This document shows, piece after piece, positions 23,939 to 64,000 of a stretch of DNA of 64,000 nucleotides. The position numbers and the translations under genes are program-made. The DNA comes from Arenicola marina (Eukaryota; Annelida; Polychaeta; Arenicolidae): the NCBI GenBank assembly GCA_964019135.1, contig OZ025248.1, positions 29,629,670 to 29,693,669 on the forward strand, in the 5' to 3' direction. Position 1 is the first letter of the stretch; the number at the start of each line of letters is the position of its first letter. The notes under the pieces are model-generated. The model saw only the letters and a program-made list of their open reading frames with translations, did no database searches and was not told the origin of the DNA.

Positions 23939-24074
23939 GCTGGTGTCAGTAACAGGGGCCAATGGCGCTCTGCTGCACACAGACCACACCACCGTTGACA
24001 AATGGAAGCCGCTATCGACGGACGTAGATCAGCCGACATCATTGATCGCAACTAAATGAAAAATACTATAGTGC

Positions 24075-24778
24075 GGCTTTGCTCTTTGATCTTTGCCTTA
24101 GCCGTACTGCTGCCTGAAGCTTTGCGCGTGCGGAAACAAGTCCAGGCTGGAAACTATCACTAGCCTCAGCTCACAACAGACTAGTCGATGGAGCGGCAGT
24201 TTGATACATGAAGCCAGCAGCCATAAGTACATCAACCGGATGCCGAGTTCTAAGTGGGAATCCTCCGAAGGTGGTGACAACTTGTTCGACAGTCTTCATT
24301 CCTGCCTCTCTTGCGCTGAAGAATTTGTTAGAGAGGATGGAAGAAAAGGCTGGGAGGATTTCCCTGCATTTCAAATTCCCTCCATAGACTTCGGAGACAG
24401 CGACATGATATAGTCCCGAACGAGCCTGAGGAACATGTCTACAACCTCGGACACAAGCCTCCCTTGCGAAAGAAGAACTCGTGGCCACTGTTGCGAAGAA
24501 CCAGCAGATGTACCAACAACAAGGCGGCACCCATCAAACGCAACAAATCTTTTGTCGACCTTCAGACTCAGTCAATAGCATTCAGACGATGTGGATCTGG
24601 ACGTAGCAGCCGCGCTCGTTATGCAGACCAAATGGAGGATGGACAGTCACATAACCCACGGCCGTCTATGTCACCAAGGAAGAAGCGATTATTGTCGCGA
24701 AGACTGAAACGCATGAACCGTCATTTACAACAGAATGGCGTTTCATCGCTTCAGCTACAAACCTTGGGTCTTCTGTGA
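24075..24778 (+). pseudogene. Array unit 1: broken left-edge copy of the 233-codon ORF
   Basis: Homology to the unit begins around 24080, within the start of the ORF, so there is no promoter and no ATG. It has TAG at codon 9, a second TAG in place of the serine codon at residue 113 (atatag for atatcg), a 3-base insertion and one net lost base near 24540, after which the remaining frame reads on to the usual stop at 24778. Confidence 0.8.
24098..24301 (-). other. Possible decayed BIR (IAP-repeat) sequence antisense to the unit ORF
   Basis: On the minus strand the pieces read MKTVEQVVTTFGGFP, then HPVDVLMAAGFMYQT, then in a second frame VCCELR and FPHAQSFRQQYG. By eye this follows the order of a BIR domain: RL.TF..WP, then LA.AGF.YTG, then C..C, then FP.C.F...G. 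The zinc ligands are not preserved and the frame is interrupted, so it would be non-functional. The same stretch recurs antisense in every unit, about 20 to 230 bases after the ORF start. The match is unverified. Confidence 0.33.
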
Positions 24779-25047
24779 CACAGCTTGACTACCCTAATTT
24801 ATTTCTGTATACCTTTTGTTTTAGCTGCATTGCTTATTTAAACCAATAAACCGGTCAAAATTACTTTTTCGTGCTTGGTGTTTATCCTGGTCATACAAAA
24901 TACAATACTACCATCGAAAGTGTCGAGATATGAGCCGCACACATGGTTAGTTAGCTTTAAAAATTGCCAAATACATGCAGAGTAGTCATATTGACAATAT
25001 ACTCGGAACGTACAATCAACTGTTAGGCGCTGTAGGGCAAGATACAC

Positions 25048-25521
25048 ATGCATAATTTTACACCATTGAATCAGCTCAGGAAAAATGCCATATACAAGGT
25101 GCAGCAAGAAACTATTCCAGATTTGCTTGAGCGTTATAGTTATTTGAAACGTTACGCATGCTCTACAAAAGGTGTATCATACAATTTGTTCTGCTTGACT
25201 ATAGCTAACTGCGTCTCAGATCCGTCTCCCGCGACACCATTTGTACCGAATTTCAATGAAACTTGTCGGCAATTGAGGAAAGTAGTGACATTTTTCATAT
25301 GTAATAGGCTTGACGCTAAAAAGAAGACAAAATGTTACGACACATGCACAGGGATGTTTTGTGATATAGAAAATAGCAGTGAAGGATTCCACAAAAGGTT
25401 TCTTAAAGTGACGCATGTCAAAAATAGTGAGGCGATAGAACTAACACACGCGGTGACGCTCAATCTCCGAAATCGATTATTTGCTGTTGAGCTAAAATTG
25501 CAATTAGTTCGAACTAATTGA
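25048..25521 (+). CDS. Unit 1 spacer ORF, 157 codons, unknown
   Basis: Only in the left-edge unit does the spacer hold one long open frame, starting at an ATG at 25048 (MHNFTPLNQLRKNAIYKV) and ending at the palindrome near 25501-25520. It is Cys-, Lys- and Phe-rich (FFICNRLDAKKKTKCYDTC). Interior units lack 17 bases at this point, which splits the frame into pieces of 64 and 69 codons. I do not recognise the product. It may be the remains of an older coding segment of the unit, or chance. Confidence 0.25.
   Translation: MHNFTPLNQLRKNAIYKVQQETIPDLLERYSYLKRYACSTKGVSYNLFCLTIANCVSDPSPATPFVPNFNETCRQLRKVVTFFICNRLDAKKKTKCYDTCTGMFCDIENSSEGFHKRFLKVTHVKNSEAIELTHAVTLNLRNRLFAVELKLQLVRTN
25501..25520. 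promoter_or_regulatory. Perfect 20-base palindrome in the unit spacer
   Basis: caattagttcgaactaattg equals its own reverse complement. It is also perfect in unit 2 (27167-27186). In unit 3 it has one mismatch (28833-28852), and in most interior units the centre is atcgaa. It contains two inverted TAATT cores of the kind homeodomain proteins bind. It lies about 200-240 bases upstream of the TATA-like box of the next unit. Function is unknown. Confidence 0.5.
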
Positions 25522-25759
25522 ATAACAATTCGAATCTCGGTGGTGGCATTTAGAGTAGTACTGTCTCTTTCCCGGGATTGTTGAAAGTCAACGGAACTGC
25601 TCCTGACACTGACATACCTCTATTTATGGCAGATAGAAACCACCATACTTCATTCTATACTCCTAGGACTCTTACAGAAACAACGACGAGTACAGTACTA
25701 AAGCAGACACGCCATGAATACTATTATTCAATATCAGCTGAGCTTGGTGTAAGGCAAAG

Positions 25760-26461
25760 ATGGCACTGCTTCGATCTTTGCCTTAGCCGTACTGCTGCCT
25801 GAAGCTTTGCGCGTGCGGAAACAAGTCCAGGCTGGAAACTATCAGTAACCTTAGCTCACAACAGACTAGTCGATGGAGCGGCAGTTTGATACATGAAGCC
25901 AGCAGCCATAAGTACATCAACCGGATGCCGAGTTCTAAGTGGGAATCCTCCGAAGGTGGTGACAACTTGTTCGACAGTCTTCATTCCTGCCTCTCTTGCG
26001 CTGAAGAATTTGTCAGAGGGGATGGAAGAAAAGGCTGGGGGGATTTCCCTGCATTTCAAATTCCCTCCATAGACTTCGGAGACAGCGACATGATATCGTC
26101 CCGAACGAGCCTGAGGAACATGTCTACAACCTCGAACACAAGCCTCCCGCGCGAAGGGAGAACTCGTGGCGACGGTTGCGAAGAACCAGCAGATGTACCA
26201 ACAAGGCGGCACCCATCAAACACAAACAATTCTTTTGTCGACCTTCAGACTCAGTCTATAGCATTCAGACGATGTGGATCTGGACGTAGCCGCCGCGCTC
26301 GTTATGCAGATCAAATGGAGGATGGACAGTCACATAACCCACGGCCGTCTCTGTCACCAAGGAAGAAGCGATTATTGTCGCGAAGACTGAAACGCATGAA
26401 CCGTCATTTACAACAGAATGGCGTTTCATCGCTTCAGCTACAAACCTTGGCTCTTCTGTGA
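25760..26461 (+). pseudogene. Array unit 2: ORF with stop at codon 9
   Basis: The ATG (25760-25762) and context gcaaagATGg are intact but codon 9 is TAG where interior copies have CAG; unit 1 has TAG too. From codon 10 the frame is open to the usual TGA at 26459-26461. Compared with unit 16 I count about 12 amino-acid-changing and 5 silent differences, among them M51K, E87G, E94G and S178R. Confidence 0.75.
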
Positions 26462-27286
26462 TACAGCTTGACTACCCTAATTTATTTCTATATAGCTTTT
26501 GTTTTAGCTGCATTGTTTACTTAAACCAATAAACAGGTCAAAATTACCTTATCGTGCTTGGTGTTTTTTCTGGCCAAACAAAATACAATACTACCATTGA
26601 AAGTGTCGAGATATGAGCCGCACACATGGTTAGTTAGCTTTACAAATTGCCAAATACATGCAGAGTAGTCATATTGACAATATACTCGGAACGTACAATC
26701 AACTGTTAAGCGCTGTAGAGCAAGATACACATGCATAATTTTACACCATTGAATCAGCTCAGGAAAAACGCTGTATACATGGTGCATCAAGAAACTATTC
26801 CAGATTTGTTTGAGCGTTATAGTTATTTGAAACGTTACGCATGCTCTATAAAAGGTGTATCATACAATTTGCTCTTCTTGCTCAGATCCATCTCCTGCGA
26901 CACCATTTGTGCCGAATTACTATGAAACTTGTCGGAAATTGAGTAAAGTATTGATATTCTTTATATGTAATAGCCTTGACGGTAAAAAGAAGACAAAATG
27001 TTACGTCACATTCACACTGATGTTTTGTAATAGAGAAAATAGCAGTAACAGATTCCACAAATGAATCCTTAAAGTGACACATGTTAAAAATAGTGAGGCG
27101 ATAGAGATAACAAACGCGGTGACGCTCAATCTCTGAAATCGATTATTTGCTGTTGAGCTAAAATTGCAATTAGTTCGAACTAATTGAATAACAATTCGAA
27201 TCTCGGTGGTGGCATTTAGAGAAGTACTGCCTCTTTCCCGGGATTGTTGACAGTCAACGGAACTGCTCCTGACACTGACATACCTC

Positions 27287-27294
27287 TATTTAAG
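27287..27294 (+). promoter_or_regulatory. TATA-like box of unit 3 (tatttaag), repeated in other units
   Basis: tatttaag lies 132-139 bases before the ATG at 27426, in the context cctctatttaaggcagac. The same place in most units is identical, but upstream of units 5, 7, 9, 11 and 13 it reads tattgaag, which should weaken it. Confidence 0.5.
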
Positions 27295-27425
27295 GCAGAC
27301 AGACCACCACAATACTTCATTGTATACTCCTAGGACTCTTTGAGAAACAACGGCGAGTACAGTACTAAAGCAGACACGCCATAATACTATTGTTCAATAT
27401 CAGCTGAGCTTGGTGCAAGGCAAAG

Positions 27426-28127
27426 ATGGCACTGCTTCGACCTTTGCCTCAGCCGTACTGCTGCCTGAAGCTTTGCGCATGCGGAAACAAGTCCAGGCTG
27501 GAAACTGTCACTAGCCTCAGCTCACCACAGACTAGTCGATGGAGCGGCAGTTTGATACATGAAGCCAGCAGCCAGATGTACATCAACCGGATGCCGAGTT
27601 CTAAGTGGGAATCCTCCGAAGGTGGTGACAACTTGTTCGACAGTCTTCATTCCTGCCTCTCTTGCGCTGAAGAATTTGTCAGAGAGGATGGAAGAAAAGG
27701 CTGGGAGGACTTCCCTGCATTTCAAATTCCCTCCATAGACTTCGGAGACAGCGACATGATATCGTCCCGAACGAGCCTGATGAACATGTCTACAACCTCG
27801 GACACAAGCCTCCCGCGCGAAGGAAGAACTCGTGGTGACGGTTGCGAAGAACCAGCAGATGTACCAACAAGGCGGCACCCATCAAACACAAACAATTCTT
27901 TTGTCGACCTTCAGACTCAGTCTATAGCATTCAGACGATGTGGATCTGGACGTAGCAGCCGCGCTCGTTATGCAGACCAAATGGAGGATAGACAGTTACA
28001 TAACCCACGGCCGTCTCTGTCACCAAGGAAGAAGCGATTATTGTCGCGAAGACTGAAACGCATGAACCGTCATTTACAACAGAATGGCGTTTCATCGCTT
28101 CAGCTACAAACCTTGGCTCTTCTGTGA
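27426..28127 (+). CDS. Array unit 3 ORF, 233 codons (type A)
   Basis: First intact copy from the left. The start context gcaaagATGg is good (A at -3, G at +4). Type A marks are Q50 and M119; it also has L191. Followed by AATAAA at 28194. Confidence 0.45.
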   Translation: MALLRPLPQPYCCLKLCACGNKSRLETVTSLSSPQTSRWSGSLIHEASSQMYINRMPSSKWESSEGGDNLFDSLHSCLSCAEEFVREDGRKGWEDFPAFQIPSIDFGDSDMISSRTSLMNMSTTSDTSLPREGRTRGDGCEEPADVPTRRHPSNTNNSFVDLQTQSIAFRRCGSGRSSRARYADQMEDRQLHNPRPSLSPRKKRLLSRRLKRMNRHLQQNGVSSLQLQTLALL

Positions 28128-28193
28128 TACAGCTTGACTACCCTAATTTATTTCTGTATAGCTTTTGTTTTAGCTGCATTGTTTATTTAAACC

Positions 28194-28199
28194 AATAAA
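28194..28199 (+). terminator. Polyadenylation signal of unit 3, repeated in other units
   Basis: AATAAA in accaataaacagg, 67 bases after the stop codon. About 25 bases downstream is a GT-rich stretch (gtgcttggtgttt), as expected for a real cleavage site. Both are kept in all copies, for example 63179-63184 in unit 24. Confidence 0.6.
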
Positions 28200-29091
28200 C
28201 AGGTCAAAATTACTTTATCGTGCTTGGTGTTTATTCTGGCCAAACAAAATACAATACTACCATTGAAAGTGTCGAGATATGAGCCGCACACATGGTTAGT
28301 TAGCTTTACAAATTGCCAAATACATACAGAGTAGTCATATTGACAATATACTCGGAACGTACAATCAACTGTTAAGCGCTGTAGGGCAAGATACACATGC
28401 ATAATTTTACACCATTGAATCAGCTCAGGAAAAACGCTGTATACATGGTGCATCAAGAAACTATTCCAGATTTGTTTGAGCGTTATAGTTATTTGAAACG
28501 TTACGCATGCTCTACAAAAGGTGTATCATACAATTTGCTCTTCTTGCTCAGATCCATCTCCTGCGACACCATTTGTGCCGAATTACTATGAAACTTGTCG
28601 GAAATTGAGTAAAGTATTGATATTCTTTATATGTAATAGGCTTGACGGTAAAAAGAAGACAAAATGTTACGTCACATTCACACTGATGTTTTGTAATAGA
28701 GAAAATAGCAGTAAAAGATTCCACAAATGAATCCTTGAAGTGACACATGTTAAAAATAGTGAGGCGATAGAAATAACGAACTCGGTGACGCTCAATCTCT
28801 GAAATCGATTATTTGCTGTTGAGCTAAAGTTGCAATTAGTTCGAAGTAATTGAATAACAATTCGAATCTCGGTGGTGGCATTTAGAGTAGTACTGTCTCT
28901 TTCCCGGGATTGTTGAAAGTCAACGGAACTGCTCCTGACACTGACATACCTCTATTTAAGGCAGACCGACCACCACAATACGTCATTGTATACTCCTAGG
29001 ACTCTTTGAGAAACAACGGCGAGTACAGTACTAAAGCAGACACGCCATAATACTATTGTTCAATATCAGCTGAGCTTGGTGCAAGGCAAAG

Positions 29092-29768
29092 ATGGCACTG
29101 CTTCGACCTTTGCCTCAGCCGTACTGCTGCCTGAAGCTTTGCGCATGTGGAAACAAGTCCAGGCTGGAAACTGTCACTAGCCTCAGCTCACCACAGACTA
29201 GTCGATGGAGCGGCAGTTTGATACATGAAGCCAGCAGCCATATGTACATCAACCGGATGCCGAGTTCTAAGTGGGAATCCTCCGAAGGTGGTGACAACTT
29301 GTTTGACAGTCTTCATTCCTGCCTCTCTTGCGCTGAAGAATTTGTCAGAGAGGATGGAAGAAAGGCTGGGAGGACTTCCCTGCAATTCAAATTCCCTCCA
29401 TAGACTTCGGAGACAGCGACATGATATCGTCCCGAACGAGCCTGAGGAACATGTCTACAACCTCGGACACAAGCCTCCCGCGCGAAGGAAGAACTCGTGG
29501 CGACGGTTGCGAAGAACCAGCAGATGTACCAACAAGGCGGCACCCATCAAACACAAACAATTGTTTTGTCGACCTTCAGACTCAGTCTATAGCATTCAGA
29601 CGATGTGGATCTGGACGTAGCAACCGCGCTCGTTATGCAGACCAAATGGAGGATGGACAGTCACATAACCCACGGCCGTCTCTGTCACCAAGGAAGAAGC
29701 GATTATTGTCGCGAAGACTGAAACGCATGAACCGTCATTTACAACAGAATGGCGTTTCATCGCTTTAG
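29092..29768 (+). pseudogene. Array unit 4: ORF with a one-base deletion
   Basis: Type B (H50). One A is lost from the gaagaaaagg run near 29363, giving a 103-codon product ending at 29403. The rest is almost the same as unit 6. It also carries the early TAG at codon 226. The deletion may be real or an assembly error in an A-run. Confidence 0.65.
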
Positions 29769-30756
29769 CTACAAACCTTGGCTCTTCTGTGATACAGCTT
29801 GACTACCCTAATTTATTTCTATATAGCTTTTGTTTTAGCTGCATTGTTTACTTAAACCAATAAACAGGTCAAAATTACCTTATCGTGCTTGGTGTTTATT
29901 CTGGCCAAACGAAATACAATACGACCATTGAAAGTGTCGAGATATGAGCCGCACACATGGTTAGTTAGCTTTACAAATTGCCAAATACATGCAGAGTAGT
30001 CATATTGACAATATACTCGGAACGTACAATCAACTGTTAAGCGCTGTAAGGCAAGATACACATGCATATTTTTACACCATTGAATCAGCTCAGGAAAAAC
30101 GCTGTATACATGGTGCATCAAGAAACTATTCCAGATTTGCTTGAGCGTTGTATTTATTTGAAACGTTACGCATGCTCTACAAAAGGTGTATCATACAATC
30201 TGCTCTTCTTGCTCAGATTCATCTCCTGCGACACCATTTGTGCCGAACTTCTATGAAACTTGTCGGAAATTAAGTAAAGTATTGATATTCGTTATATGTA
30301 ATAGGCTTGACGGTAAAAAGAAGACAAAATGTTACGTCACATTCACACTGATGTTTTGTAATAGAGAAAATAGCAGTAACAGATTCCACAAATAAATTCT
30401 TAAAGTGACACATGTTAAAAATAGTGAGGCGATAGAAATAACAAACGCGGTGACGCTCAATCTCCGAAATCGATTATTTGCTGTTGAGCTAAAATTGCAA
30501 TTAGATCGAACTAATTGAATAACAATTCGAATCTCAGTGGTGGCAGTTAGAATAGTACTGTCTCTTTCCCGGGATTGTTGAGTGTCAACGGAACTGCTCC
30601 TGACACTGACATACCTCTATTGAAGGCAGACAGACCACCACCATACTTCATTGTATACTCCTAGGACTCTTTGAGAAACAACGGCGAGTACAGTACTAAA
30701 GCAGACACGCCATAATACTATTGTTCAATATCAGCTGAGCTTGGTGCAAGGCAAAG

Positions 30757-31458
30757 ATGGCACTGCTTCGACCTTTGCCTCAGCCGTACTGCTGCCTGAA
30801 GCTTTGCGCATGCGGAAACAAGTCCAGGCTGGAAACTGTCACTAGCCTCAGCTCACCACAGACTAGTCGATGGAGCGGCAGTTTGATACATGAAGCCAGC
30901 AGCCAGATGTACATCAACCGGATGCCGAGTTCTAAGTGGGAATCCTCCGAAGGTGGTGACAACTTGTTCGACAGTTTTCATTCCTGCCTCTCTTGCGCTG
31001 AAGAATTTGTCAGAGAGGATGGAAGAAAAGGCTGGGAGGACTTCCCTGCATTTCAAATTCCCTCCATAGACTTCGGAGACAGCGACATGATATCGTCCCG
31101 AACGAGCCTGATGAACATGTCTACAACCTCGGACACAAGCCTCCCGCGCGAAGGAAGAACTCGTGGTGACGGTTGCGAAGAACCAGCAGATGTACCAACA
31201 AGGCGGCACCCATCAAACACAAACAATTCTTTTGTCGACCTTCAGACTCAGTCTATAGCATTCAGACGATGTGGATCTGGACGTAGCAGCCGCGCTCGTT
31301 ATGCAGACCAAATGGAGGATAGACAGTTACATAACCCACGGCCGTCTCTGTCACCAAGGAAGAAGCGATTATTGTCGCGAAGACTGAAACGCATGAACCG
31401 TCATTTACAACAGAATGGCGTTTCATCGCTTCAGCTACAAACCTTGGCTCTTCTGTGA
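30757..31458 (+). CDS. Array unit 5 ORF, 233 codons (type A)
   Basis: Q50, M119, L191 and a private L74F. Upstream TATA-like box is the tattgaag variant. Units 5-6 closely repeat units 3-4. Confidence 0.42.
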   Translation: MALLRPLPQPYCCLKLCACGNKSRLETVTSLSSPQTSRWSGSLIHEASSQMYINRMPSSKWESSEGGDNLFDSFHSCLSCAEEFVREDGRKGWEDFPAFQIPSIDFGDSDMISSRTSLMNMSTTSDTSLPREGRTRGDGCEEPADVPTRRHPSNTNNSFVDLQTQSIAFRRCGSGRSSRARYADQMEDRQLHNPRPSLSPRKKRLLSRRLKRMNRHLQQNGVSSLQLQTLALL

Positions 31459-32422
31459 TACAGCTTGACTACCCTAATTTATTTCTGTATAGCTTTTGTT
31501 TTAGCTGCATTGTTTATTTAAACCAATAAACAGGTCAAAATTACTTTATCGTGCTTGGTGTTTATTCTGGCCAAACAAAATACAATACTACCATTGAAAG
31601 TGTCGAGATATGAGCCGCACACATGGTTAGTTAGCTTTACAAATTGCCAAATACATACAGAGTAGTCATATTGACAATATACTCGGAACGTACAATCAAC
31701 TGTTAAGCGCTGTAGGGCAAGATACACATGCATAATTTTACACCATTGAATCAGCTCAGGAAAAACGCTGTATACATGGTGCATCAAGAAACTATTCCAG
31801 ATTTGTTTGAGCGTTATAGTTATTTGAAACGTTACGCATGCTCTACAAAAGGTGTATCATACAATTTGCTCTTCTTGCTCAGATCCATCTCCTGCGACAC
31901 CATTTGTGCCGAATTACTATGAAACTTGTCGGAAATTGAGTAAAGTATTGATATTCTTTATATGTAATAGGCTTGACGGTAAAAAGAAGACAAAATGTTA
32001 CGTCACATTCACACTGATGTTTTGTAATAGAGAAAATAGCAGTAAAAGATTCCACAAATGAATCCTTGAAGTGACACATGTTAAAAATAGTGAGGCGATA
32101 GAAATAACGAACTCGGTGACGCTCAATCTCTGAAATCGATTATTTGCTGTTGAGCTAAAGTTGCAATTAGTTCGAAGTAATTGAATAACAATTCGAATCT
32201 CGGTGGTGGCATTTAGAGTAGTACTGTCTCTTTCCCGGGATTGTTGAAAGTCAACGGAACTGCTCCTGACACTGACATACCTCTATTTAAGGCAGACCGA
32301 CCACCACAATACGTCATTGTATACTCCTAGGACTCTTTGAGAAACAACGGCGAGTACAGTACTAAAGCAGACACGCCATAATACTATTGTTCAATATCAG
32401 CTGAGCTTGGTGCAAGGCAAAG

Positions 32423-33100
32423 ATGGCACTGCTTCGACCTTTGCCTCAGCCGTACTGCTGCCTGAAGCTTTGCGCATGTGGAAACAAGTCCAGGCTGGAA
32501 ACTGTCACTAGCCTCAGCTCACCACAGACTAGTCGATGGAGCGGCAGTTTGATACATGAAGCCAGCAGCCATATGTACATCAACCGGATGCCGAGTTCTA
32601 AGTGGGAATCCTCCGAAGGTGGTGACAACTTGTTTGACAGTCTTCATTCCTGCCTCTCTTGCGCTGAAGAATTTGTCAGAGAGGATGGAAGAAAAGGCTG
32701 GGAGGACTTCCCTGCAATTCAAATTCCCTCCATAGACTTCGGAGACAGCGACATGATATCGTCCCGAACGAGCCTGAGGAACATGTCTACAACCTCGGAC
32801 ACAAGCCTCCCGCGCGAAGGAAGAACTCGTGGCGACGGTTGCGAAGAACCAGCAGATGTACCAACAAGGCGGCACCCATCAAACACAAACAATTGTTTTG
32901 TCGACCTTCAGACTCAGTCTATAGCATTCAGACGATGTGGATCTGGACGTAGCAACCGCGCTCGTTATGCAGACCAAATGGAGGATGGACAGTCACATAA
33001 CCCACGGCCGTCTCTGTCACCAAGGAAGAAGCGATTATTGTCGCGAAGACTGAAACGCATGAACCGTCATTTACAACAGAATGGCGTTTCATCGCTTTAG
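32423..33100 (+). CDS. Array unit 6 ORF, 225 codons (type B)
   Basis: H50, I99, C158, N178, G189. Codon 226 is TAG instead of CAG, removing the last eight residues. Its promoter box is the intact tatttaag. Confidence 0.42.
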   Translation: MALLRPLPQPYCCLKLCACGNKSRLETVTSLSSPQTSRWSGSLIHEASSHMYINRMPSSKWESSEGGDNLFDSLHSCLSCAEEFVREDGRKGWEDFPAIQIPSIDFGDSDMISSRTSLRNMSTTSDTSLPREGRTRGDGCEEPADVPTRRHPSNTNNCFVDLQTQSIAFRRCGSGRSNRARYADQMEDGQSHNPRPSLSPRKKRLLSRRLKRMNRHLQQNGVSSL

Positions 33101-34088
33101 CTACAAACCTTGGCTCTTCTGTGATACAGCTTGACTACCCTAATTTATTTCTATATAGCTTTTGTTTTAGCTGCATTGTTTACTTAAACCAATAAACAGG
33201 TCAAAATTACCTTATCGTGCTTGGTGTTTATTCTGGCCAAACGAAATACAATACGACCATTGAAAGTGTCGAGATATGAGCCGCACACATGGTTAGTTAG
33301 CTTTACAAATTGCCAAATACATGCAGAGTAGTCATATTGACAATATACTCGGAACGTACAATCAACTGTTAAGCGCTGTAAGGCAAGATACACATGCATA
33401 TTTTTACACCATTGAATCAGCTCAGGAAAAACGCTGTATACATGGTGCATCAAGAAACTATTCCAGATTTGCTTGAGCGTTGTATTTATTTGAAACGTTA
33501 CGCATGCTCTACAAAAGGTGTATCATACAATCTGCTCTTCTTGCTCAGATTCATCTCCTGCGACACCATTTGTGCCGAACTTCTATGAAACTTGTCGGAA
33601 ATTAAGTAAAGTATTGATATTCGTTATATGTAATAGGCTTGACGGTAAAAAGAAGACAAAATGTTACGTCACATTCACACTGATGTTTTGTAATAGAGAA
33701 AATAGCAGTAACAGATTCCACAAATAAATTCTTAAAGTGACACATGTTAAAAATAGTGAGGCGATAGAAATAACAAACGCGGTGACGCTCAAACTCCGAA
33801 ATCGATTATTTGCTGTTGAGCTAAAATTGCAATTAGATCGAACTAATTGAATAACAATTCGAATCTCAGTGGTGGCAGTTAGAATAGTACTGTCTCTTTC
33901 CCGGGATTGTTGAGTGTCAACGGAACTGCTCCTGACACTGACATACCTCTATTGAAGGCAGACAGACCACCACCATACTTCATTGTATACTCCTAGGACT
34001 CTTTGAGAAACAACGGCGAGTACAGTACTAAAGCAGACACGCCATAATACTATTGTTCAATATCAGCTGAGCTTGGTGCAAGGCAACG

Positions 34089-35754: not shown

Positions 35755-36432
35755 ATGGCACTGCTTCGACCTTTGCCTCAGCCGTACTGCTGCCTGAAGC
35801 TTTGCGCATGCGGAAACAAGTCCAGGCTGGAAACTGTCACTAGCCTCAGCTCACCACAGACTAGTCGATGGAGCGGCAGTTTGATACATGAAGCCAGCAG
35901 CCATATGTACATCAACCGGATGCCGAGTTCTAAGTGGGAATCCTCCGAAGGTGGTGACAACTTGTTTGACAGTCTTCATTCCTGCCTCTCTTGCGCTGAA
36001 GAATTTGTCAGAGAGGATGGAAGAAAAGGCTGGGAGGACTTCCCTGCAATTCAAATTCCCTCCATAGACTTCGGAGACAGCGACATGATATCGTCCCGAA
36101 CGAGCCTGAGGAACATGTCTACAACCTCGGACACAAGCCTCCCGCGCGAAGGAAGAACTCGTGGCGACGGTTGCGAAGAACCAGCAGATGTACCAACAAG
36201 GCGGCACCCATCAAACACAAACAATTCTTTTGTCGACCTTCAGACTCAGTCTATAGCATTCAGACGATGTGGATCTGGACGTAGCAACCGCGCTCGTTAT
36301 GCAGACCAAATGGAGGATGGACAGTCACATAACCCACGGCCGTCTCTGTCACCAAGGAAGAAGCGATTATTGTCGCGAAGACTGAAACGCATGAACCGTC
36401 ATTTACAACAGAATGGCGTTTCATCGCTTTAG
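35755..36432 (+). CDS. Array unit 8 ORF, 225 codons (type B)
   Basis: H50, I99, S158, N178, G189, early TAG at codon 226. The leader before the ATG has the ggagacacgtcataataatatt form shared with units 12, 14-17, 20, 23 and 24. Confidence 0.42.
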   Translation: MALLRPLPQPYCCLKLCACGNKSRLETVTSLSSPQTSRWSGSLIHEASSHMYINRMPSSKWESSEGGDNLFDSLHSCLSCAEEFVREDGRKGWEDFPAIQIPSIDFGDSDMISSRTSLRNMSTTSDTSLPREGRTRGDGCEEPADVPTRRHPSNTNNSFVDLQTQSIAFRRCGSGRSNRARYADQMEDGQSHNPRPSLSPRKKRLLSRRLKRMNRHLQQNGVSSL

Positions 36433-54782: not shown

Positions 54783-55746
54783 TACAGCTTGACTACCCTA
54801 ATTTATTTCTGTATAGCTTTTGTTTTAGCTGCATTGTTTATTTAAACCAATAAACAGGTCAAAATTACTTTATCGTGCTTGGTGTTTATTCTGGCCAAAC
54901 AAAATACAATACGACCATTGAAAGTGTCGATATATGAGCCGCACACATGGTTAGTTAGCTTTACAAATTGCCAAATACATGCAGAGTAGTCATATTGACA
55001 ATATACTCGGAACGTACAATCAACTGTTAAGCGCTGTAGGGCAAGATACACATGCATAATTTTACACCATTGAATCAGCTCAGGAAAAACGCTGTATACA
55101 TGGTGCATCAAGAAACTATTCCAGATTTGCTTGAGCGTTATAGTTATTTGAAACGTTACGCATGCTCTACAAAAGGTTTATCATACAATTTGCTCTTCTT
55201 GCTCAGATCCATCTCCGGCGACACCATTTGTGCCGAATTACTATGAAACTTGTCGGAAATTGAGTAAAGTATTGATATTCTTTTTATGTAATAGGCTTGA
55301 CGGTAAAAAGAAGACAAAATGTTACGTCACATTCACACTGATGTTTTGTAATAGAGAAAATAGCAGTAAAAGATTCCACAAATGAATCCTTAAAGTGACA
55401 CATGTTAAAAATAGTGAGGCGATAGAAATAACAAACGCGGTGACGCTCAATCTCCGAAATCGATTATTTGCTGTTGAGCTAAAATTGCAATTAGATCGAA
55501 CTAATTGAATAACAATTCGAATCTCAGTGGTGGCAGTTAGAATAGTACTGTCTCTTTCCCGGGATAGTTGGGTGTCAACGGAACTGCTCCTGACACTGAC
55601 ATACCTCTATTTAAGGCAGAGAGACCACCACCATACTTCATTGTATACTCCTAGGACTCTTTGAGAAACAACGGCGAGTACAGTACTAAAGGAGACACGT
55701 CATAATAATATTATTCAATATCAGCTGAGCTTGGTGCAAGGCAAAG

Positions 55747-56448
55747 ATGGCACTGCTTCGACCTTTGCCTCAGCCGTACTGCTGCCTGAAGCTTTGCGCA
55801 TGCGGAAACAAGTCCAGGCTGGAAACTGTCACTAGCCTCAGCTCACCACAGACTAGTCGATGGAGCGGCAGTTTGATACATGAAGCCAGCAGCCATATGT
55901 ACATCAACCGGATGCCGAGTTCTAAGTGGGAATCCTCCGAAGGTGGTGACAACTTGTTCGACAGTCTTCATTCCTGCCTCTCTTGCGCTGAAGAATTTGT
56001 CAGAGAGGATGGAAGAAAAGGCTGGGAGGACTTCCCTGCATTTCAAATTCCCTCCATAGACTTCGGAGACAGCGACATGATATCGTCCCGAACGAGCCTG
56101 AGGAACATGTCTACAACCTCGGACACAAGCCTCCCGCGCGAAGGAAGAACTCGTGGCGACGGTTGCGAAGAACCAGCAGATGTACCAACAAGGCGGCACC
56201 CATCAAACACAAACAATTCTTTTGTCGACCTTCAGACTCAGTCTATAGCATTCAGACGATGTGGATCTGGACGTAGCAGCCGCGCTCGTTATGCAGACCA
56301 AATGGAGGATAGACAGTCACATAACCCACGGCCGTCTCTGTCACCAAGGAAGAAGCGATTATTGTCGCGAAGACTGAAACGCATGAACCGTCATTTACAA
56401 CAGAATGGCGTTTCATCGCTTCAGCTACAAACCTTGGCTCTTCTGTGA
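55747..56448 (+). CDS. Array unit 20 ORF, 233 codons (type B)
   Basis: Same protein as unit 16. Third member of the trimer block 18-20. Leader has a private gagagacc change. Confidence 0.42.
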   Translation: MALLRPLPQPYCCLKLCACGNKSRLETVTSLSSPQTSRWSGSLIHEASSHMYINRMPSSKWESSEGGDNLFDSLHSCLSCAEEFVREDGRKGWEDFPAFQIPSIDFGDSDMISSRTSLRNMSTTSDTSLPREGRTRGDGCEEPADVPTRRHPSNTNNSFVDLQTQSIAFRRCGSGRSSRARYADQMEDRQSHNPRPSLSPRKKRLLSRRLKRMNRHLQQNGVSSLQLQTLALL

Positions 56449-57412
56449 TACAGCTTGACTACCCTAATTTATTTCTGTATAGCTTTTGTTTTAGCTGCAT
56501 TGTTTATTTAAACCAATAAACAGGTCAAAATTACTTTATCGTGCTTGGTGTTTATTCTGGCCAAACAAAATACAATACGACCATTGAAAGTGTCGATATA
56601 TGAGCCGCACACATGGTTAGTTAGCTTTACAAATTGCCAAATACATGCAGAGTAGTCATATTGACAATATACTCGGAACGTACAATCAACTGTTAAGCGC
56701 TGTAGGGCAAGATACACATGCATAATTTTACACCATTGAATCAGCTCAGGAAAAACGCTGTATACATGGTGCATCAAGAAACTATTCCAGATTTGTTTGA
56801 GCGTTATAGTTATTTGAAACGTTACGCATGCTCTATAAAAGGTGTATCATACAATTTGCTCTTCTTGCTCAGATCCATCTCCTGCGACACCATTTGTGCC
56901 GAATTACTATGAAACTTGTCGGAAATTGAGTAAAGTATTGATATTCTTTATATGTAATAGTCTTGACGGTAAAAAGAAGACAAAATGTTACGTCACATTC
57001 ACACTGATGTTTTGTAATAGAGAAAATAGCAGTAACAGATTCCACAAATGAATCCTTAAAGTGACACATGTTAAAAATAGTGAGGCGATAGAAATAACAA
57101 ACGCGGTGACGCTCAATCTCCGAAATCGATTATTTGCTGTTGAGCTAAAATTGCAATTAGATCGAACTAATTGAATAACAATTCGAATCTCAGTGGTGGC
57201 AGTTAGAATAGTACTGTCTCTTTCCCGGGATTGTTGAGTGTCAACGGAACGGCTCCTGACACTGACATACCTCTATTTAAGGCAGACAGACCACCACCAT
57301 ACTTCATTGTATACTCCTAGGACTCTTTGAGAAACAACGGCGAGTACAGTACTAAAGCAGACACGCCATAATACTATTGTTCAATATCAGCTGAGCTTGG
57401 TGCAAGGCAAAG

Positions 57413-58114
57413 ATGGCACTGCTTCGACCTTTGCCTCAGCCGTACTGCTGCCTGAAGCTTTGCGCATGCGGAAACAAGTCCAGGCTGGAAACTGTCACTA
57501 GCCTCAGCTCACCACAGACTAGTCGATGGAGCGGCAGTTTGATACATGAAGCCAGCAGCCAGATGTACATCAACCGGATGCCGAGTTCTAAGTGGGAATC
57601 CTCCGAAGGTGGTGACAACTTGTTCGACAGTCTTCATTCCTGCCTCTCTTGCGCTGAAGAATTTGTCAGAGAGGATGGAAGAAAAGGCTGGGAGGACTTC
57701 CCTGCATTTCAAATTCCCTCCATAGACTTCGGAGACAGCGACATGATATCGTCCCGAACGAGCCTGATGAACATGTCTACAACCTCGGACACAAGCCTCC
57801 CGCGCGAAGGAAGAACTCGTGGCGACGGTTGCGAAGAACCAGCAGATGTACCAACAAGGCGGCACCCATCAAACACAAACAATTGTTTTGTCGACCCTCA
57901 GACTCAGTCTATAGCATTCAGACGATGTGGATCTGGACGTAGCAACCGCGCTCGTTATGCAGACCAAATGGAGGATAGACAGTCACATAACCCACGGCCG
58001 TCTCTGTCACCAAGGAAGAAGCGATTATTGTCGCGAAGACTGAAACGCATGAACCGTCATTTACAACAGAATGGCGTTTCATCGCTTCAGCTACAAACCT
58101 TGGCTCTTCTGTGA
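57413..58114 (+). CDS. Array unit 21 ORF, 233 codons (type A variant)
   Basis: As unit 18 but R189 and a private L162P. Opens the second trimer block 21-23. Confidence 0.42.
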   Translation: MALLRPLPQPYCCLKLCACGNKSRLETVTSLSSPQTSRWSGSLIHEASSQMYINRMPSSKWESSEGGDNLFDSLHSCLSCAEEFVREDGRKGWEDFPAFQIPSIDFGDSDMISSRTSLMNMSTTSDTSLPREGRTRGDGCEEPADVPTRRHPSNTNNCFVDPQTQSIAFRRCGSGRSNRARYADQMEDRQSHNPRPSLSPRKKRLLSRRLKRMNRHLQQNGVSSLQLQTLALL

Positions 58115-59078
58115 TACAGCTTGACTACCCTAATTTATTTCTATATAGCTTTTGTTTTAGCTGCATTGTTTACTTAAACCAATAAACAGGTCAAAATTAC
58201 CTTATCGTGCTTGGTGTTTATTCTGGCCAAACAAAATACAATACGACCATTGAAAGTGTCGAGATATGAGCCGCACACATGGTTAGTTAGCTTTACAAAT
58301 TGCCAAATACATGCAGAGTAGTCATATTGACAATATACTCGGAACGTACAATCAACTGTTAAGCGCTGTAAGGCAAGATACACATGCATATTTTTACACC
58401 ATTGAATCAGCTCAGGAAAAACGCTGTATACATGGTGCATCATGAAACTATTCCAGATTTGCTTGAGCGTTGTATTTATTTGAAACGTTACGCATGCTCT
58501 ACAAAAGGTGTATCATACAATCTGCTCTTCTTGCTCAGATTCATCTCCTGCGACACCATTTGTGCCGAACTTCTATGAAACTTGTCGGAAATTAAGTAAA
58601 GTATTGATATTCGTTATATGTAATAGGCTTGACGGTAAAAAGAAGACAAAATGTTACGTCACATTCACACTGATGTTTTGTAATAGAGAAAATAGCAGTA
58701 ACAGATTCCACAAATAAATTCTTAAAGTGACACATGTTAAAAATAGTGAGGCGATAGAAATAACAAACGCGGTGACGCTCAATCTCCGAAATCGATTATT
58801 TGCTGTTGAGCTAAAATTGCAATTAGATCGAACTAATTGAATAACAATTCGAATCTCAGTGGTGGCAGTTAGAATAGTACTGTCTCTTTCCCGGGATTGT
58901 TGAGTGTCAACGGAACTGCTCCTGACACTGACATACCTCTATTTAAGGCAGACAGACCACCACCATACTTCATTGTATACTCCTAGGACTCTTTGAGAAA
59001 CAACGGCGAGTACAGTACTAAAGCAGACACGCCATAATACTATTGTTCAATATCAGCTGAGCTTGGTGCAAGGCAAAG

Positions 59079-59780
59079 ATGGCACTGCTTCGACCTTTGC
59101 CTCAGCCGTACTGCTGCCTGAAGCTTTGCGCATGCGGAAACAAGTCCAGGCTGGAAACTGTCACTAGCCTCAGCTCACCACAGACTAGTCGATGGAGCGG
59201 CAGTTTGATACATGAAGCCAGCAGCCATATGTACATCAACCGGATGCCGAGTTCTAAGTGGGAATCCTCTGAAGGTGGTGACAACTTGTTGGACAGTCTT
59301 CATTCCTGCCTCTCTTGCGCTGAAGAATTTGTCAGAGAGGATGGAAGAAAAGGCTGGGAGGACTTCCCTGCATTTCAAATTCCCTCCATAGACTTCGGAG
59401 ACAGCGACATGATATCGTCCCGAACGAGCCTGAGGAACATGTCTACAACCTCGGACACAAGCCTCCCGCGCGAAGGAAGAACTCGTGGCGACGGTTGCGA
59501 AGAACCAGCAGATGTACCAACAAGGCGGCACCCATCAAACACAAACAATTCTCTTGTCGACCTTCAGACTCAGTCTATAGCATTCAGACGATGTGGATCT
59601 GGACGTAGCAGCCGCGCTCGTTATGCAGACCAAATGGAGGATGGACAGTCACATAACCCACGGCCGTCTCTGTCACCAAGGAAGAAGCGATTATTGTCGC
59701 GAAGACTGAAACGCATGAACCGTCATTTACAACAGAATGGCGTTTCATCGCTTCAGCTACAAACCTTGGCTCTTCTGTGA
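59079..59780 (+). CDS. Array unit 22 ORF, 233 codons (type B variant)
   Basis: F71L like unit 19, private F159L, G189. Confidence 0.42.
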   Translation: MALLRPLPQPYCCLKLCACGNKSRLETVTSLSSPQTSRWSGSLIHEASSHMYINRMPSSKWESSEGGDNLLDSLHSCLSCAEEFVREDGRKGWEDFPAFQIPSIDFGDSDMISSRTSLRNMSTTSDTSLPREGRTRGDGCEEPADVPTRRHPSNTNNSLVDLQTQSIAFRRCGSGRSSRARYADQMEDGQSHNPRPSLSPRKKRLLSRRLKRMNRHLQQNGVSSLQLQTLALL

Positions 59781-60744
59781 TACAGCTTGACTACCCTAAT
59801 TTATTTCTGTATAGCTTTTGTTTTAGCTGCATTGTTTATTTAAACCAATAAACAGGTCAAAATTACTTTATCGTGCTTGGTGTTTATTCTGGCCAAACAA
59901 AATACAATACGACCATTGAAAGTGTCGATATATGAGCCGCACACATGGTTAGTTAGCTTTACAAATTGCCAAATACATGCAGAGTAGTCATATTGACAAT
60001 ATACTCGGAACGTACAATCAACTGTTAAGCGCTGTAGGGCAAGATACACATGCATAATTTTACACCATTGAATCAGCTCAGGAAAAACGCTGTATACATG
60101 GTGCATCAAGAAACTATTCCAGATTTGCTTGAGCGTTATAGTTATTTGAAACGTTACGCATGCTCTACAAAAGGTTTATCATACAATTTGCTCTTCTTGC
60201 TCAGATCCATCTCCTGCGACACCATTTGTGCCGAATTACTATGAAACTTGTCGGAAATTGAGTAAAGTATTGATATTCTTTTTATGTAATAGGCTTGACG
60301 GTAAAAAGAAGACAAAATGTTACGTCACATTCACACTGATGTTTTGTAATAGAGAAAATAGCAGTAAAAGATTCCACAAATGAATCCTTAAAGTGACACA
60401 TGTTAAAAATAGTGAGGCGATAGAAATAACAAACGCGGTGACGCTCAATCTCCGAAATCGATTATTTGCTGTTGAGCTAAAATTGCAATTAGATCGAACT
60501 AATTGAATAACAATTCGAATCTCAGTGGTGGCAGTTAGAATAGTACTGTCTCTTTCCCGGGATTGTTGGGTGTCAACGGAACTGCTCCTGACACTGACAT
60601 ACCTCTATTTAAGGCAGACAGACCACCACCATACTTCATTGTATACTCCTAGGACTCTTTGAGAAACAACGGCGAGTACAGTACTAAAGGAGACACGTCA
60701 TAATAATATTATTCAATATCAGCTGAGCTTGGTGCAAGGCAAAG

Positions 60745-61446
60745 ATGGCACTGCTTCGACCTTTGCCTCAGCCGTACTGCTGCCTGAAGCTTTGCGCATG
60801 CGGAAACAAGTCCAGGCTGGAAACTGTCACTAGCCTCAGCTCACCACAGACTAGTCGATGGAGCGGCAGTTTGATACATGAAGCCAGCAGCCATATGTAC
60901 ATCAACCGGATGCCGAGTTCTAAGTGGGAATCCTCCGAAGGTGGTGACAACTTGTTCGACAGTCTTCATTCCTGTCTCTCTTGCGCTGAAGAATTTGTCA
61001 GAGAGGATGGAAGAAAAGGCTGGGAGGACTTCCCTGCATTTCAAATTCCCTCCATAGACTTCGGAGACAGCGACATGATATCGTCCCGAACGAGCCTGAG
61101 GAACATGTCTACAACCTCGGACACAAGCCTCCCGCGCGAAGGAAGAACTCGTGGCGACGGTTGCGAAGAACCAGCAGATGTACCAACAAGGCGGCACCCA
61201 TCAAACACAAACAATTCTTTTGTCGACCTTCAGACTCAGTCTATAGCATTCAGACGATGTGGATCTGGACGTAGCAGCCGCGCTCGTTATGCAGACCAAA
61301 TGGAGGATAGACAGTCACACAACCCACGGCCGTCTCTGTCACCAAGGAAGAAGCGATTATTGTCGCGAAGACTGAAACGCATGAACCGTCATTTACAACA
61401 GAATGGCGTTTCATCGCTTCAGCTACAAACCTTGGCTCTTCTGTGA
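60745..61446 (+). CDS. Array unit 23 ORF, 233 codons (type B)
   Basis: Same protein as unit 16, with the silent tcctgtctc change at residue 77 shared with unit 24. Confidence 0.42.
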   Translation: MALLRPLPQPYCCLKLCACGNKSRLETVTSLSSPQTSRWSGSLIHEASSHMYINRMPSSKWESSEGGDNLFDSLHSCLSCAEEFVREDGRKGWEDFPAFQIPSIDFGDSDMISSRTSLRNMSTTSDTSLPREGRTRGDGCEEPADVPTRRHPSNTNNSFVDLQTQSIAFRRCGSGRSSRARYADQMEDRQSHNPRPSLSPRKKRLLSRRLKRMNRHLQQNGVSSLQLQTLALL

Positions 61447-62410
61447 TACAGCTTGACTACCCTAATTTATTTCTGTATAGCTTTTGTTTTAGCTGCATTG
61501 TTTATTTAAACCAATAAACAGGTCAAAATTACTTTATCGTGCTTGGTGTTTATTCTGGCCAAACAAAATACAATACGACCATTGAAAGTGTCGATATATG
61601 AGCCGCACACATGGTTAGTTAGCTTTACAAATTGCCAAATACATGCAGAGTAGTCATATTGACAATATACTCGGAACGTACAATCAACTGTTAAGCGCTG
61701 TAGGGCAAGATACACATGCATAATTTTACACCATTGAATCAGCTCAGGAAAAACGCTGTATACATGGTGCATCAAGAAACTATTCCAGATTTGTTTGAGC
61801 GTTATAGTTATTTGAAACGTTACGCATGCTCTATAAAAGGTTTATCATACAATTTGCTCTTCTTGCTCAGATCCATCTCCTGCGACACCATTTGTGCCGA
61901 ATTACTATGAAACTTGTCGGAAATTGAGTAAAGTATTGATATTCTTTATATGTAATAGTCTTGACGGTAAAAAGAAGACAAAATGTTACGTCACATTCAC
62001 ACTGATGTTTTGTAATAGAGAAAATAGCAGTAACAGATTCCACAAATGAATCCTTAAAGTGACACATGTTAAAAATAGTGAGGCGATAGAAATAACAAAC
62101 GCGGTGACGCTCAATCTCCGAAATCGATTATTTGCTGTTGAGCTAAAATTGCAATTAGATCGAACTAATTGAATAACAATTCGAATCTCAGTGGTGGCAG
62201 TTAGAATAGTACTGTCTCTTTCCCGGGATTGTTGGGTGTCAACGGAACTGCTCCTGACACTGACATACCTCTATTTAAGGCAGACAGACCACCACCATAC
62301 TTCATTGTATACTCCTAGGACTCTTTGAGAAACAACGGCGAGTACAGTACTAAAGGAGACACGTCATAATAATATTATTCAATATCAGCTGAGCTTGGTG
62401 CAAGGCAAAG

Positions 62411-63112
62411 ATGGCACTGCTTCGACCTTTGCCTCAGCCGTACTGCTGCCTGAAGCTTTGCGCATGCGGAAACAAGTCCAGGCTGGAAACTGTCACTAGC
62501 CTCAGCTCACCACAGACTAGTCGATGGAGCGGCAGTTTGATACATGAAGCCAGCAGCCATATGTACATCAACCGGATGCCGAGTTCTAAGTGGGAATCCT
62601 CCGAAGGTGGTGACAACTTGTTCGACAGTCTTCATTCCTGTCTCTCTTGCGCTGAAGAATTTGTCAGAGAGGATGGAAGAAAAGGCTGGGAGGACTTCCC
62701 TGCATTTCAAATTCCCTCCATAGACTTCGGAGACAGCGACATGATATCGTCCCGAACGAGCCTGAGGAACATGTCTACAACCTCGGACACAAGCCTCCCG
62801 CGCGAAGGAAGAACTCGTGGCGACGGTTGCGAAGAACCAGCAGATGTACCAACAAGGCGGCACCCATCAAACACAAACAATTCTTTTGTCGACCTTCAGA
62901 CTCAGTCTATAGCATTCAGACGATGTGGATCTGGACGTAGCAGCCGCGCTCGTTATGCAGACCAAATGGAGGATAGACAGTCACATAACCCACGGCCGTC
63001 TCTGTCACCAAGGAAGAAGCGATTATTGTCGCGAAGACTGAAACGCATGAACCGTCATTTACAACAGAATGGCGTTTCATCGCTTCAGCTACAAACCTTG
63101 GCTCTTCTGTGA
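62411..63112 (+). CDS. Array unit 24 ORF, 233 codons (type B)
   Basis: Same protein as unit 16. Its spacer switches midway (after about 63460) to the form that follows units 18 and 21, so this unit is a recombinant of two spacer types. Confidence 0.42.
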   Translation: MALLRPLPQPYCCLKLCACGNKSRLETVTSLSSPQTSRWSGSLIHEASSHMYINRMPSSKWESSEGGDNLFDSLHSCLSCAEEFVREDGRKGWEDFPAFQIPSIDFGDSDMISSRTSLRNMSTTSDTSLPREGRTRGDGCEEPADVPTRRHPSNTNNSFVDLQTQSIAFRRCGSGRSSRARYADQMEDRQSHNPRPSLSPRKKRLLSRRLKRMNRHLQQNGVSSLQLQTLALL

Positions 63113-64000
63113 TACAGCTTGACTACCCTAATTTATTTCTGTATAGCTTTTGTTTTAGCTGCATTGTTTATTTAAACCAATAAACAGGTCAAAATTACTT
63201 TATCGTGCTTGGTGTTTATTCTGGCCAAACAAAATACAATACGACCATTGAAAGTGTCGATATATGAGCCGCACACATGGTTAGTTAGCTTTACAAATGG
63301 CCAAATACATGCAGAGTAGTCATATTGACAATATACTCGGAACGTACAATCAACTGTTAAGCGCTGTAGGGCAAGATACACATGCATAATTTTACACCAT
63401 TGAATCAGCTCAGGAAAAACGCTGTATACATGGTGCATCAAGAAACTATTCCAGATTTGCTTGAGCGTTGTATTTATTTGAAACGTTACGCATGCTCTAC
63501 AAAAGGTGTATCATACAATCTGCTCTTCTTGCTCAGATTCATCTCCTGCGACACCATTTGTGCCGAACTTCTATGAAACTTGTCGGAAATTAAGTAAAGT
63601 ATTGATATTCGTTATATGTAATAGGCTTGACGGTAAAAAGAAGACAAAATGTTACGTCACATTCACACTGATGTTTTGTAATAGAGAAAATAGCAGTAAC
63701 AGATTCCACAAATAAATTCTTAAAGTGACACATGTTAAAAATAGTGAGGCGATAGAAATAACAAACGCGGTGACGCTCAATCTCCGAAATCGATTATTTG
63801 CTGTTGAGCTAAAATTGCAATTAGATCGAACTAATTGAATAACAATTCGAATCTCAGTGGTGGCAGTTAGAATAGTACTGTCTCTTTCCCGGGATTGTTG
63901 AGTGTCAACGGAACTGCTCCTGACACTGACATACCTCTATTTAAGGCAGACAGACCACCACCATACTTCATTGTATACTCCTAGGACTCTTTGAGAAACA
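63113..64000 (+). repeat. Spacer leading into a 25th unit cut by the window end
   Basis: Contains AATAAA (63179-63184), the usual spacer and the intact TATA-like ctctatttaag near 63936. The next ATG would be expected at about 64077, outside the window. As in other units, the spacer has the acceptor-like tctgctcttcttgctcag (about 63519-63536) of unknown meaning. Confidence 0.9.

What the first reader, a model, noticed from the sequence alone, without database searches (positions are those of the whole stretch)
24080..64000. Forty-kilobase array of a self-contained gene-like unit
At least 24 head-to-tail 1,666-bp units each carry a TATA-like box, an ATG in good context, an open frame of 225-233 codons (21 of 24 intact), AATAAA and a GT-rich element. 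That is the layout of amplified genes needed in bulk (such as histone or early embryonic genes), yet the product is unlike any family I know. The full array is longer, since it leaves the window.
Basis: partly seen in the sequence, partly recalled or inferred. Interest (0 to 1): 0.78.

Follow-up and report, generated by a model that had tools for sequence, protein, structure and literature searches.

The report
Hundreds of copies of unknown gene
A segmented-worm genome carries a long row of near-identical copies of a small gene of unknown function, and a second, distantly related row on another chromosome keeps only the protein's tail alike, so the copies look like real genes and not inert repeats.

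Summary
The array is real: 24 head-to-tail 1,666-bp units in the window. It runs on to C1:29835042, 181 kb in all; of 99 full-length units 87 have an open frame (83 complete; 4 stop at codon 226 and lose a conserved tail). The genome is annelid by mitochondrial gene order. The key find lies outside the window: a second array on C17 (unit about 1,634 bp; 172 units seen in 390 kb, about 242 if gaps are filled; 148 of 150 scored frames without a stop). The arrays show no clear spacer similarity, but their last 40 codons encode 22 identical residues, with codon positions 1/2/3 identical in 25/27/12 of 40: protein-level constraint, third positions at chance. Frame diversity is about 0.4 of spacer diversity in both. 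No Pfam, PDB or viral relative. Best reading: a short intronless gene for an acidic protein with a basic tail, amplified for bulk or burst expression, probably in germline or early embryo (inferred). A Stellate-like selfish system is the main rival. No expression data.

The parts
24084..64000 (+). 24 head-to-tail units, period 1,666 bp; continues to C1:29835042 outside the window
   Evidence: blastn of one unit against window and extension
24084..25759 (+). U01, edge unit: lacks its promoter and start codon, about 93% identical, stops inside the frame
25760..27425 (+). U02: frame stops after 8 codons
29092..30756 (+). U04: frame stops after 103 codons
60745..61446 (+). Open frame of a typical intact unit (U23), 233 codons plus TGA
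60605..60614 (+). TATA-like box CTATTTAAGG, 140 bp before the ATG of U23
60636..60641 (+). Initiator-like TCATTG 31 bp after the start of the TATA-like box; the 30 bp from here are the least variable of the 30-bp spacer stretches sampled
   Evidence: the role as initiator is inferred
60739..60748 (+). Start codon context GCAAAGATGG
61324..61443 (+). Last 40 codons: basic tail with S-P-R-K-K-R and the ending LQTLALL, conserved in the C17 array
61513..61518 (+). AATAAA
61542..61551 (+). GT-rich CTTGGTGTTT downstream of AATAAA
32423..33100 (+). Example (U06) of the four 225-codon frames (also at 35755, 39087, 42419): TAG at codon 226 removes the conserved tail
21101..24001 (-). Neighbouring gene on the other strand: Sulfotransfer_2 piece 21101-22114, and an open frame 23372-24001 that may hold its first exon (first ATG near 23938, about 145 bp from the array edge)
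   Evidence: Pfam E 6.4e-22 for 21101-22114; no significant Pfam match for 23372-24001; sequence; linking the two is inference

Best explanation
The unit is a complete, short, intronless protein-coding gene with its own Pol II promoter and poly(A) signal, amplified into two separate arrays, on C1 (about 107 units) and C17 (about 240, estimated). Each array is kept uniform by unequal exchange or gene conversion, while selection keeps the frame, above all a basic C-terminal tail of about 40 residues. The product has an acidic, fast-evolving body and the basic tail, with a conserved [S/T]-P-x-K-K-R (Cdk-site-like and NLS-like; recalled labels). I infer that it works in the nucleus, is made from many templates at once in a short window (germline or early cleavage embryo, as with amplified histone genes), and that high copy number serves dose. 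Shown: array anatomy, frame conservation between arrays, reduced frame diversity. Inferred: transcription, absence of introns outside the frame, timing, nuclear role.
For: Between arrays: blastp E 8e-14 over 73 alignment columns, 32 identical; last 40 codons 22 identical residues, codon positions 25/27/12 of 40 identical, Fisher P 0.0004, third position not above chance; no blastn hit, and nhmmer finds only a weak match (2.9 bits) from the frame's 3' end to 58 bp past it. Within C1: frame pi 0.0102 against spacer 0.0242, the last 100 bp of the frame only 0.0032; 82 nonsynonymous changes where the spacer rate predicts 123.8 (Poisson P 4e-5, ignoring relatedness of units), 45 synonymous where it predicts 47; in residues 1-55 pN/pS 0.33 (P 0.004, one of five regions tested). 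In C17 (9 units read of about 240): frame pi 0.0107 against 0.025, 9 of 9 frames open. 148 of 150 scored C17 frames have no stop, although neighbour spacing varies from 993 to 1,636 bp. Both arrays have a TATA-like box before the ATG (-140 and -52) and AATAAA after the stop. In both, the last 45 residues have pI 12.0 and the rest is acidic (pI 5.8 and 4.7). Yardstick: 44 frames share the top histone score (150 of 203 candidates scored, so a lower bound).
Against: No transcript evidence could be sought. Within C1, pN/pS over the whole frame is only 0.69 and not significant on its own (P 0.06); in C17 0.77 (P 0.5, 16 changes). One antisense frame, which shares third positions with the sense frame, gives 0.56. 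12 of 99 full-length C1 frames are broken and 4 more lack the tail. In the last 38 residues pN/pS within C1 is 1.57 on 9 changes, with one nonsense. The TATA and AATAAA windows are not unusually uniform (27% and 54% of spacer windows are as low or lower). Open frames among copies 1-2% apart are weak evidence, since homogenisation alone keeps them. Nothing here shows dose or timing.
Confidence: 0.5

Rival explanations
1. A selfish, dose-dependent amplified gene pair, as with Stellate/Su(Ste) or Slx/Sly: the two arrays are driver and counter-driver acting in gametogenesis, amplified by conflict over transmission.
For: Two co-amplified arrays of one fast-evolving family on two chromosomes; unit and frame sizes near those given for Stellate (about 1,250 bp, 750-nt ORF; PMC9741089, passages seen); co-amplified gene families with spermatogenesis functions are reviewed as a sign of conflict (PMC10618873, abstract seen).
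Against: Between the 99 C1 units and 9 C17 units compared, the longest shared run is 13 nt in the same sense and 11 nt antisense, so direct cross-silencing by antisense small RNA, as between Su(Ste) and Ste (about 90% identity), is unlikely. No data on whether C1 or C17 is a sex chromosome. The tail is conserved.
Confidence: 0.2
2. A gene-bearing macrosatellite kept mostly silent, from which a few copies fire in a burst in germline or cleavage embryo, as with DUX4 in D4Z4.
For: Gene-bearing kilobase arrays are a known kind (GAGE, CT47, TSPY in PMC2588610, passages; DUX4 papers in the listing). Broken copies are tolerated (12 of 99).
Against: The array shows no excess of CpG transitions (20 of 138 sites against 83 of 584 for other C-to-T or G-to-A) and CpG o/e 0.88, against 0.88 in the left and 0.76 in the right flank, so no sign of germline DNA methylation; but this genome may be little methylated overall. 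Frame diversity is low on average over the 99 units, which many silent copies would not need.
Confidence: 0.15
3. An inert satellite that captured a gene fragment; the frame is a leftover that homogenisation keeps open.
For: Satellite-like spread: near-identical units, duplicated blocks of four units, pN/pS within arrays 0.69 and 0.77, neither significant.
Against: The tail is conserved between arrays with third positions at chance, frame diversity is 0.4 of spacer diversity in both arrays, and nonsynonymous changes in C1 are fewer than the spacer rate predicts. The dispersed C5 copy, by contrast, is broken by inserted DNA.
Confidence: 0.1

Closest known systems
Stellate / Su(Ste) of Drosophila melanogaster
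   Same: Long tandem arrays of a short protein gene, unit about 1,250 bp with 750-nt ORF, clusters on different chromosomes, up to hundreds of copies (PMC9741089, passages).
   Different: No CK2-beta relation found (Pfam, PDB); no long nucleotide match between the arrays in the units compared; sex linkage and expression unknown.
Tandem histone gene repeats (including this genome's own)
   Same: Tandem clusters of short frames; bulk demand in embryo (general knowledge).
   Different: One gene per unit, no histone domain; copies outnumber the 44 top-scoring histone frames seen, probably one histone type (a lower bound).
Human gene-bearing macrosatellites (D4Z4/DUX4, RS447/USP17, GAGE, CT47, TSPY)
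   Same: Kilobase units carrying a gene in tandem (GAGE, CT47, TSPY rows and the title of a reference on USP17 seen in PMC2588610; DUX4 from the listing).
   Different: No homeobox or peptidase domain; the two arrays here have diverged so far that clearly only a protein tail is shared.
Sea urchin hbox12/pmar1/micro1 family
   Same: Multi-copy embryonic genes whose noncoding parts diverge more than the coding parts (PMC5370098, passages).
   Different: Those have a single intron, a homeobox and 6-22 copies per individual by qPCR; here no homeobox and about 350 copies.

Membership tests
Tandemly amplified protein-coding gene array | Head-to-tail units each with a complete frame | tested here: met
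   87 of 99 full-length C1 units open, 83 of them complete; 148 of 150 scored C17 units without a stop
Tandemly amplified protein-coding gene array | Frame under selection as protein | tested here: met
   Codon positions 25/27/12 of 40 identical between arrays; within-array pN/pS alone not significant
Tandemly amplified protein-coding gene array | Transcribed from each unit's own promoter | not testable with these tools
   TATA-like and AATAAA motifs only; no RNA data held
Stellate/Su(Ste) | CK2-beta-like product | tested here: not met
   No such Pfam or PDB match
Stellate/Su(Ste) | Nucleotide identity between arrays that lets antisense small RNA act | tested here: not met
   Longest antisense run shared 11 nt between 99 C1 and 9 C17 units; shuffled consensus (same-sense control) mostly gives 10-11
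Stellate/Su(Ste) | Sex-chromosome linkage | not testable with these tools
   One assembly, no sex data
Histone genes | Histone fold | tested here: not met
   No histone match in Pfam
DUX4/D4Z4 and USP17/RS447 macrosatellites | Homeobox or deubiquitinase domain | tested here: not met
   No such match in Pfam
Transposable element | Own enzyme or dispersed copies | tested here: not met
   No enzyme domain; one dispersed relict, on C5, among the 150 of 368 candidates scored; the 40 scored of 106 candidates for a 102-bp spacer probe all lie in the C1 array

The most novel reading that the evidence does not exclude
A new family of nuclear regulators, confined to some annelids, whose genes have become among the most numerous protein genes of the genome through two arrays, each evolving in concert within itself and apart from the other, either to flood the early embryo with one protein or as two sides of a transmission conflict fought through protein dose and not small RNA.
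Probability: 0.35. Interest if true: 0.8.

Novelty: new variant of a known kind. Interest (0 to 1): 0.62.

Why it matters
Few animal protein genes are known in hundreds of near-identical tandem copies, and the familiar cases are explained by bulk demand or by genetic conflict (general knowledge). Here is an unnamed family with two arrays that show no clear common spacer yet keep one protein tail. Expression timing, array copy number in the two sexes and sister-species arrays would decide directly between dose and conflict, and would give a function to a gene with more copies than were seen of the top-scoring histone frame in the same genome (44, a lower bound).

Tried and rejected
Satellite with chance frame: disfavoured by shuffles and by the between-array codon pattern. 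Transposon: no enzyme, one broken dispersed relict among the matches scored. Structural RNA or tRNA unit: no Rfam match at gathering scores and no tRNA in the window. Viral origin: no relative of the C1 protein in viral contigs (the C17 protein was not scanned there). Edc3_linker (Pfam E 0.075), villin (PDB E 0.65) and germ cell-less (PDB E 0.063, C17 protein) matches: chance level. Spacer homology between arrays: none by blastn; nhmmer at full sensitivity gives 2.9 bits around the frame's end only. Shared 11-13-nt run around TTGCAATTA: 11 nt between the consensus sequences, within shuffled controls; the 13 nt over all copies had no control of its own. Literature: of eight searches, four aimed at such arrays in annelids or embryos and four at comparators or gene order; I recognised no listed paper as describing these arrays, from titles and starts of abstracts only. 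Other paralogs: each whole-genome search scored the best 150 of about 370 candidates, so distant single-copy relatives are not excluded.
Full report
Observation. The window holds 24 head-to-tail units from 24084 to its end, period 1,666 bp; the edge unit is 93% and the other 22 are 97-99.9% identical to U03. The four shorter frames carry the same TAG at codon 226, which removes a tail that turns out to be the conserved part. In the genome the array runs from C1:29653753 to C1:29835042 (181 kb), all on one strand, about 107 units by my count of the rows: 99 full-length and 8 partial or interrupted. One unit holds a 4.9-kb insert with reverse transcriptase and RNase H domains. On the left lies a sulfotransferase gene, on the right reelin-like exons from about 15 kb beyond the array. 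Of the 99 full-length units, 83 have 233 codons, 4 have 225 and 12 are broken. The broken ones lie at both edges and in the middle. Units near each other are on average more alike than distant ones (22.9 mismatches at distance 1, 34.6 at distance 40), as unequal exchange would give.

Organism. The genome has 867 Mb in 762 contigs. A mitochondrial stretch reads nad3, nad2, cox1, cox2, atp8, cox3 (the naming of all but cox1 is my own reading of the translations). nad3 next to nad2 and atp6 away from atp8 fit the annelid order of protein genes described in PMC2639372 (passages seen). I did not identify the species.

The second array. A protein search of the genome (150 of 368 candidates scored) found, besides the C1 array and one broken relict on C5, a second array on C17 that matches residues 165-232 at 45% identity. 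Its own frame has 155 codons. Searching with it gave 150 scored matches of 371 candidates, all on C17, 148 without a stop. Both searches together show 172 distinct units from 10267929 to 10657554, about 242 if the gaps between listed units are filled. Neighbour spacing is mostly 1634-1636 bp but also 993, 1327, 1506, 1593, 1615, 1632 and 1633.

Is it coding? Open frames alone prove little in an array of near-identical copies. Three further tests. First, between arrays: the last 40 codons give 22 identical residues, while positions 1, 2 and 3 are identical in 25, 27 and 12 of 40 codons (Fisher P 0.0004, third position not above chance). No DNA similarity was found by blastn, and nhmmer gives only 2.9 bits from the frame's end to 58 bp past it. 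Second, diversity: in C1 the frame has pi 0.0102 against 0.0242 in the spacer, with the last 100 bp at 0.0032; in 9 C17 units, 0.0107 against 0.025. Third, the kinds of change in C1: 82 nonsynonymous where the spacer rate predicts 123.8, 45 synonymous where it predicts 47, 5 nonsense where it predicts 9.2 (Poisson P 4e-5 for the nonsynonymous deficit, which ignores that the units are related). By region pN/pS is 0.33 for residues 1-55 (P 0.004), 0.80 for 56-160 (P 0.33) and 0.88 for 161-233 (P 0.58). Against this reading, pN/pS over the whole C1 frame is only 0.69 (P 0.06), in C17 0.77 (P 0.5), in the last 38 residues of C1 1.57 on 9 changes, and one antisense frame that shares third positions reaches 0.56. 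In C17 synonymous changes are also fewer than the spacer rate predicts (5 against 10.4), so part of the low frame diversity there need not be protein selection. So the between-array comparison carries most weight.

Anatomy. Consensus signals of C1 are a TATA-like box at -140 (91 of 99 units), an initiator-like TCATTG 31 bp further in the least variable of the 30-bp spacer stretches sampled, GCAAAGATGG at the start, AATAAA 67 bp after the stop (98 of 99) and a GT-rich element (91 of 99). The diversity of the TATA and AATAAA windows is not unusually low (27% and 54% of spacer windows are as low or lower). In C17, the 9 units read have TATTAAATA at -52 and AATAAA at +579 from the ATG. Both proteins have an acidic body and a last 45 residues of pI 12.0, with [S/T]-P-x-K-K-R before a run that ends LQTLA-x-x. 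That this motif looks like a Cdk site and a nuclear localisation signal is recalled, not tested.

What it is. The best reading is a short intronless gene for a probably nuclear protein, kept in about 350 copies in two arrays. As a yardstick, 44 frames share the top histone score, probably one histone type; this is a lower bound because 150 of 203 candidates were scored. Bulk or burst expression in germline or early embryo is a usual reason for such arrays, but that step is inferred. The main rival is conflict, as with Stellate, whose units (about 1,250 bp, ORF 750 nt, up to 400 copies) are similar in layout (PMC9741089, passages). The Stellate type of silencing needs nucleotide identity between arrays, and in the units compared (99 of C1, 9 of C17) the longest antisense run is 11 nt, so a conflict by protein dose would fit better. 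A silent macrosatellite is less likely: no CpG-transition excess and frame constraint on average over the array.

Family. No convincing match in Pfam, PDB sequences or viral contigs. The eight literature searches, of which four aimed at such arrays, listed nothing that I recognised as these arrays; I saw listings, passages of PMC9741089, PMC2639372, PMC5370098 and PMC2588610, and the abstract of PMC10618873. I therefore call it a new variant of a known kind: a tandemly amplified gene array, with an undescribed product and two arrays diverged down to a protein tail.

Limits. One genome, no RNA, no sister species, only 9 of about 240 C17 units read, capped genome searches, and a structure prediction that failed.

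Noticed in passing
G000:C5:27411202-27412183 (L042): A single dispersed relict of the C1 unit (86-95% identical pieces), broken by inserted DNA; similarity extends past AATAAA into the spacer, which speaks against a retrocopy.
   Followed up: partly
C1:29730845-29735760 (loci L004-L005): A 4.9-kb insert inside one unit with two long open frames; the first part of the second carries reverse transcriptase and RNase H domains. Terminal repeats were not established.
   Followed up: partly
window 21101-24001, - strand: A sulfotransferase gene whose possible first exon lies next to the array edge; the first unit lacks its promoter there.
   Followed up: partly
L016-L017, - strand: Reelin-like exons beyond the right end of the array (Reelin_subrepeat-B, E 3.7e-19 and 2.6e-16 in L017; 0.00082, below the cut-off, in L016).
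   Followed up: partly
window 4987-5880, 10908-11709, 15603-15730: Minisatellites of 14, 81 and 25 bp in the left flank.
   Followed up: no
unit position 1408-1427 (C1 consensus): Perfect 20-bp palindrome CAATTAGTTCGAACTAATTG 259 bp before the ATG; the U23 copy at 62152-62171 differs by one base, so it is not strictly kept.
   Followed up: partly
unit position 1238-1267 (C1 consensus): A low-diversity spacer stretch with TTACGTCA, a CRE-like site (name recalled), possibly regulatory.
   Followed up: no
C5:30585399-30729487, C5:43525949-43580049, C5:44637512-44691375, C9:15552884-15564988: Tandem histone gene clusters with different repeat lengths (mostly about 5.2, about 6.0, about 5.0-5.5 and 4.3 kb).
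   Followed up: no
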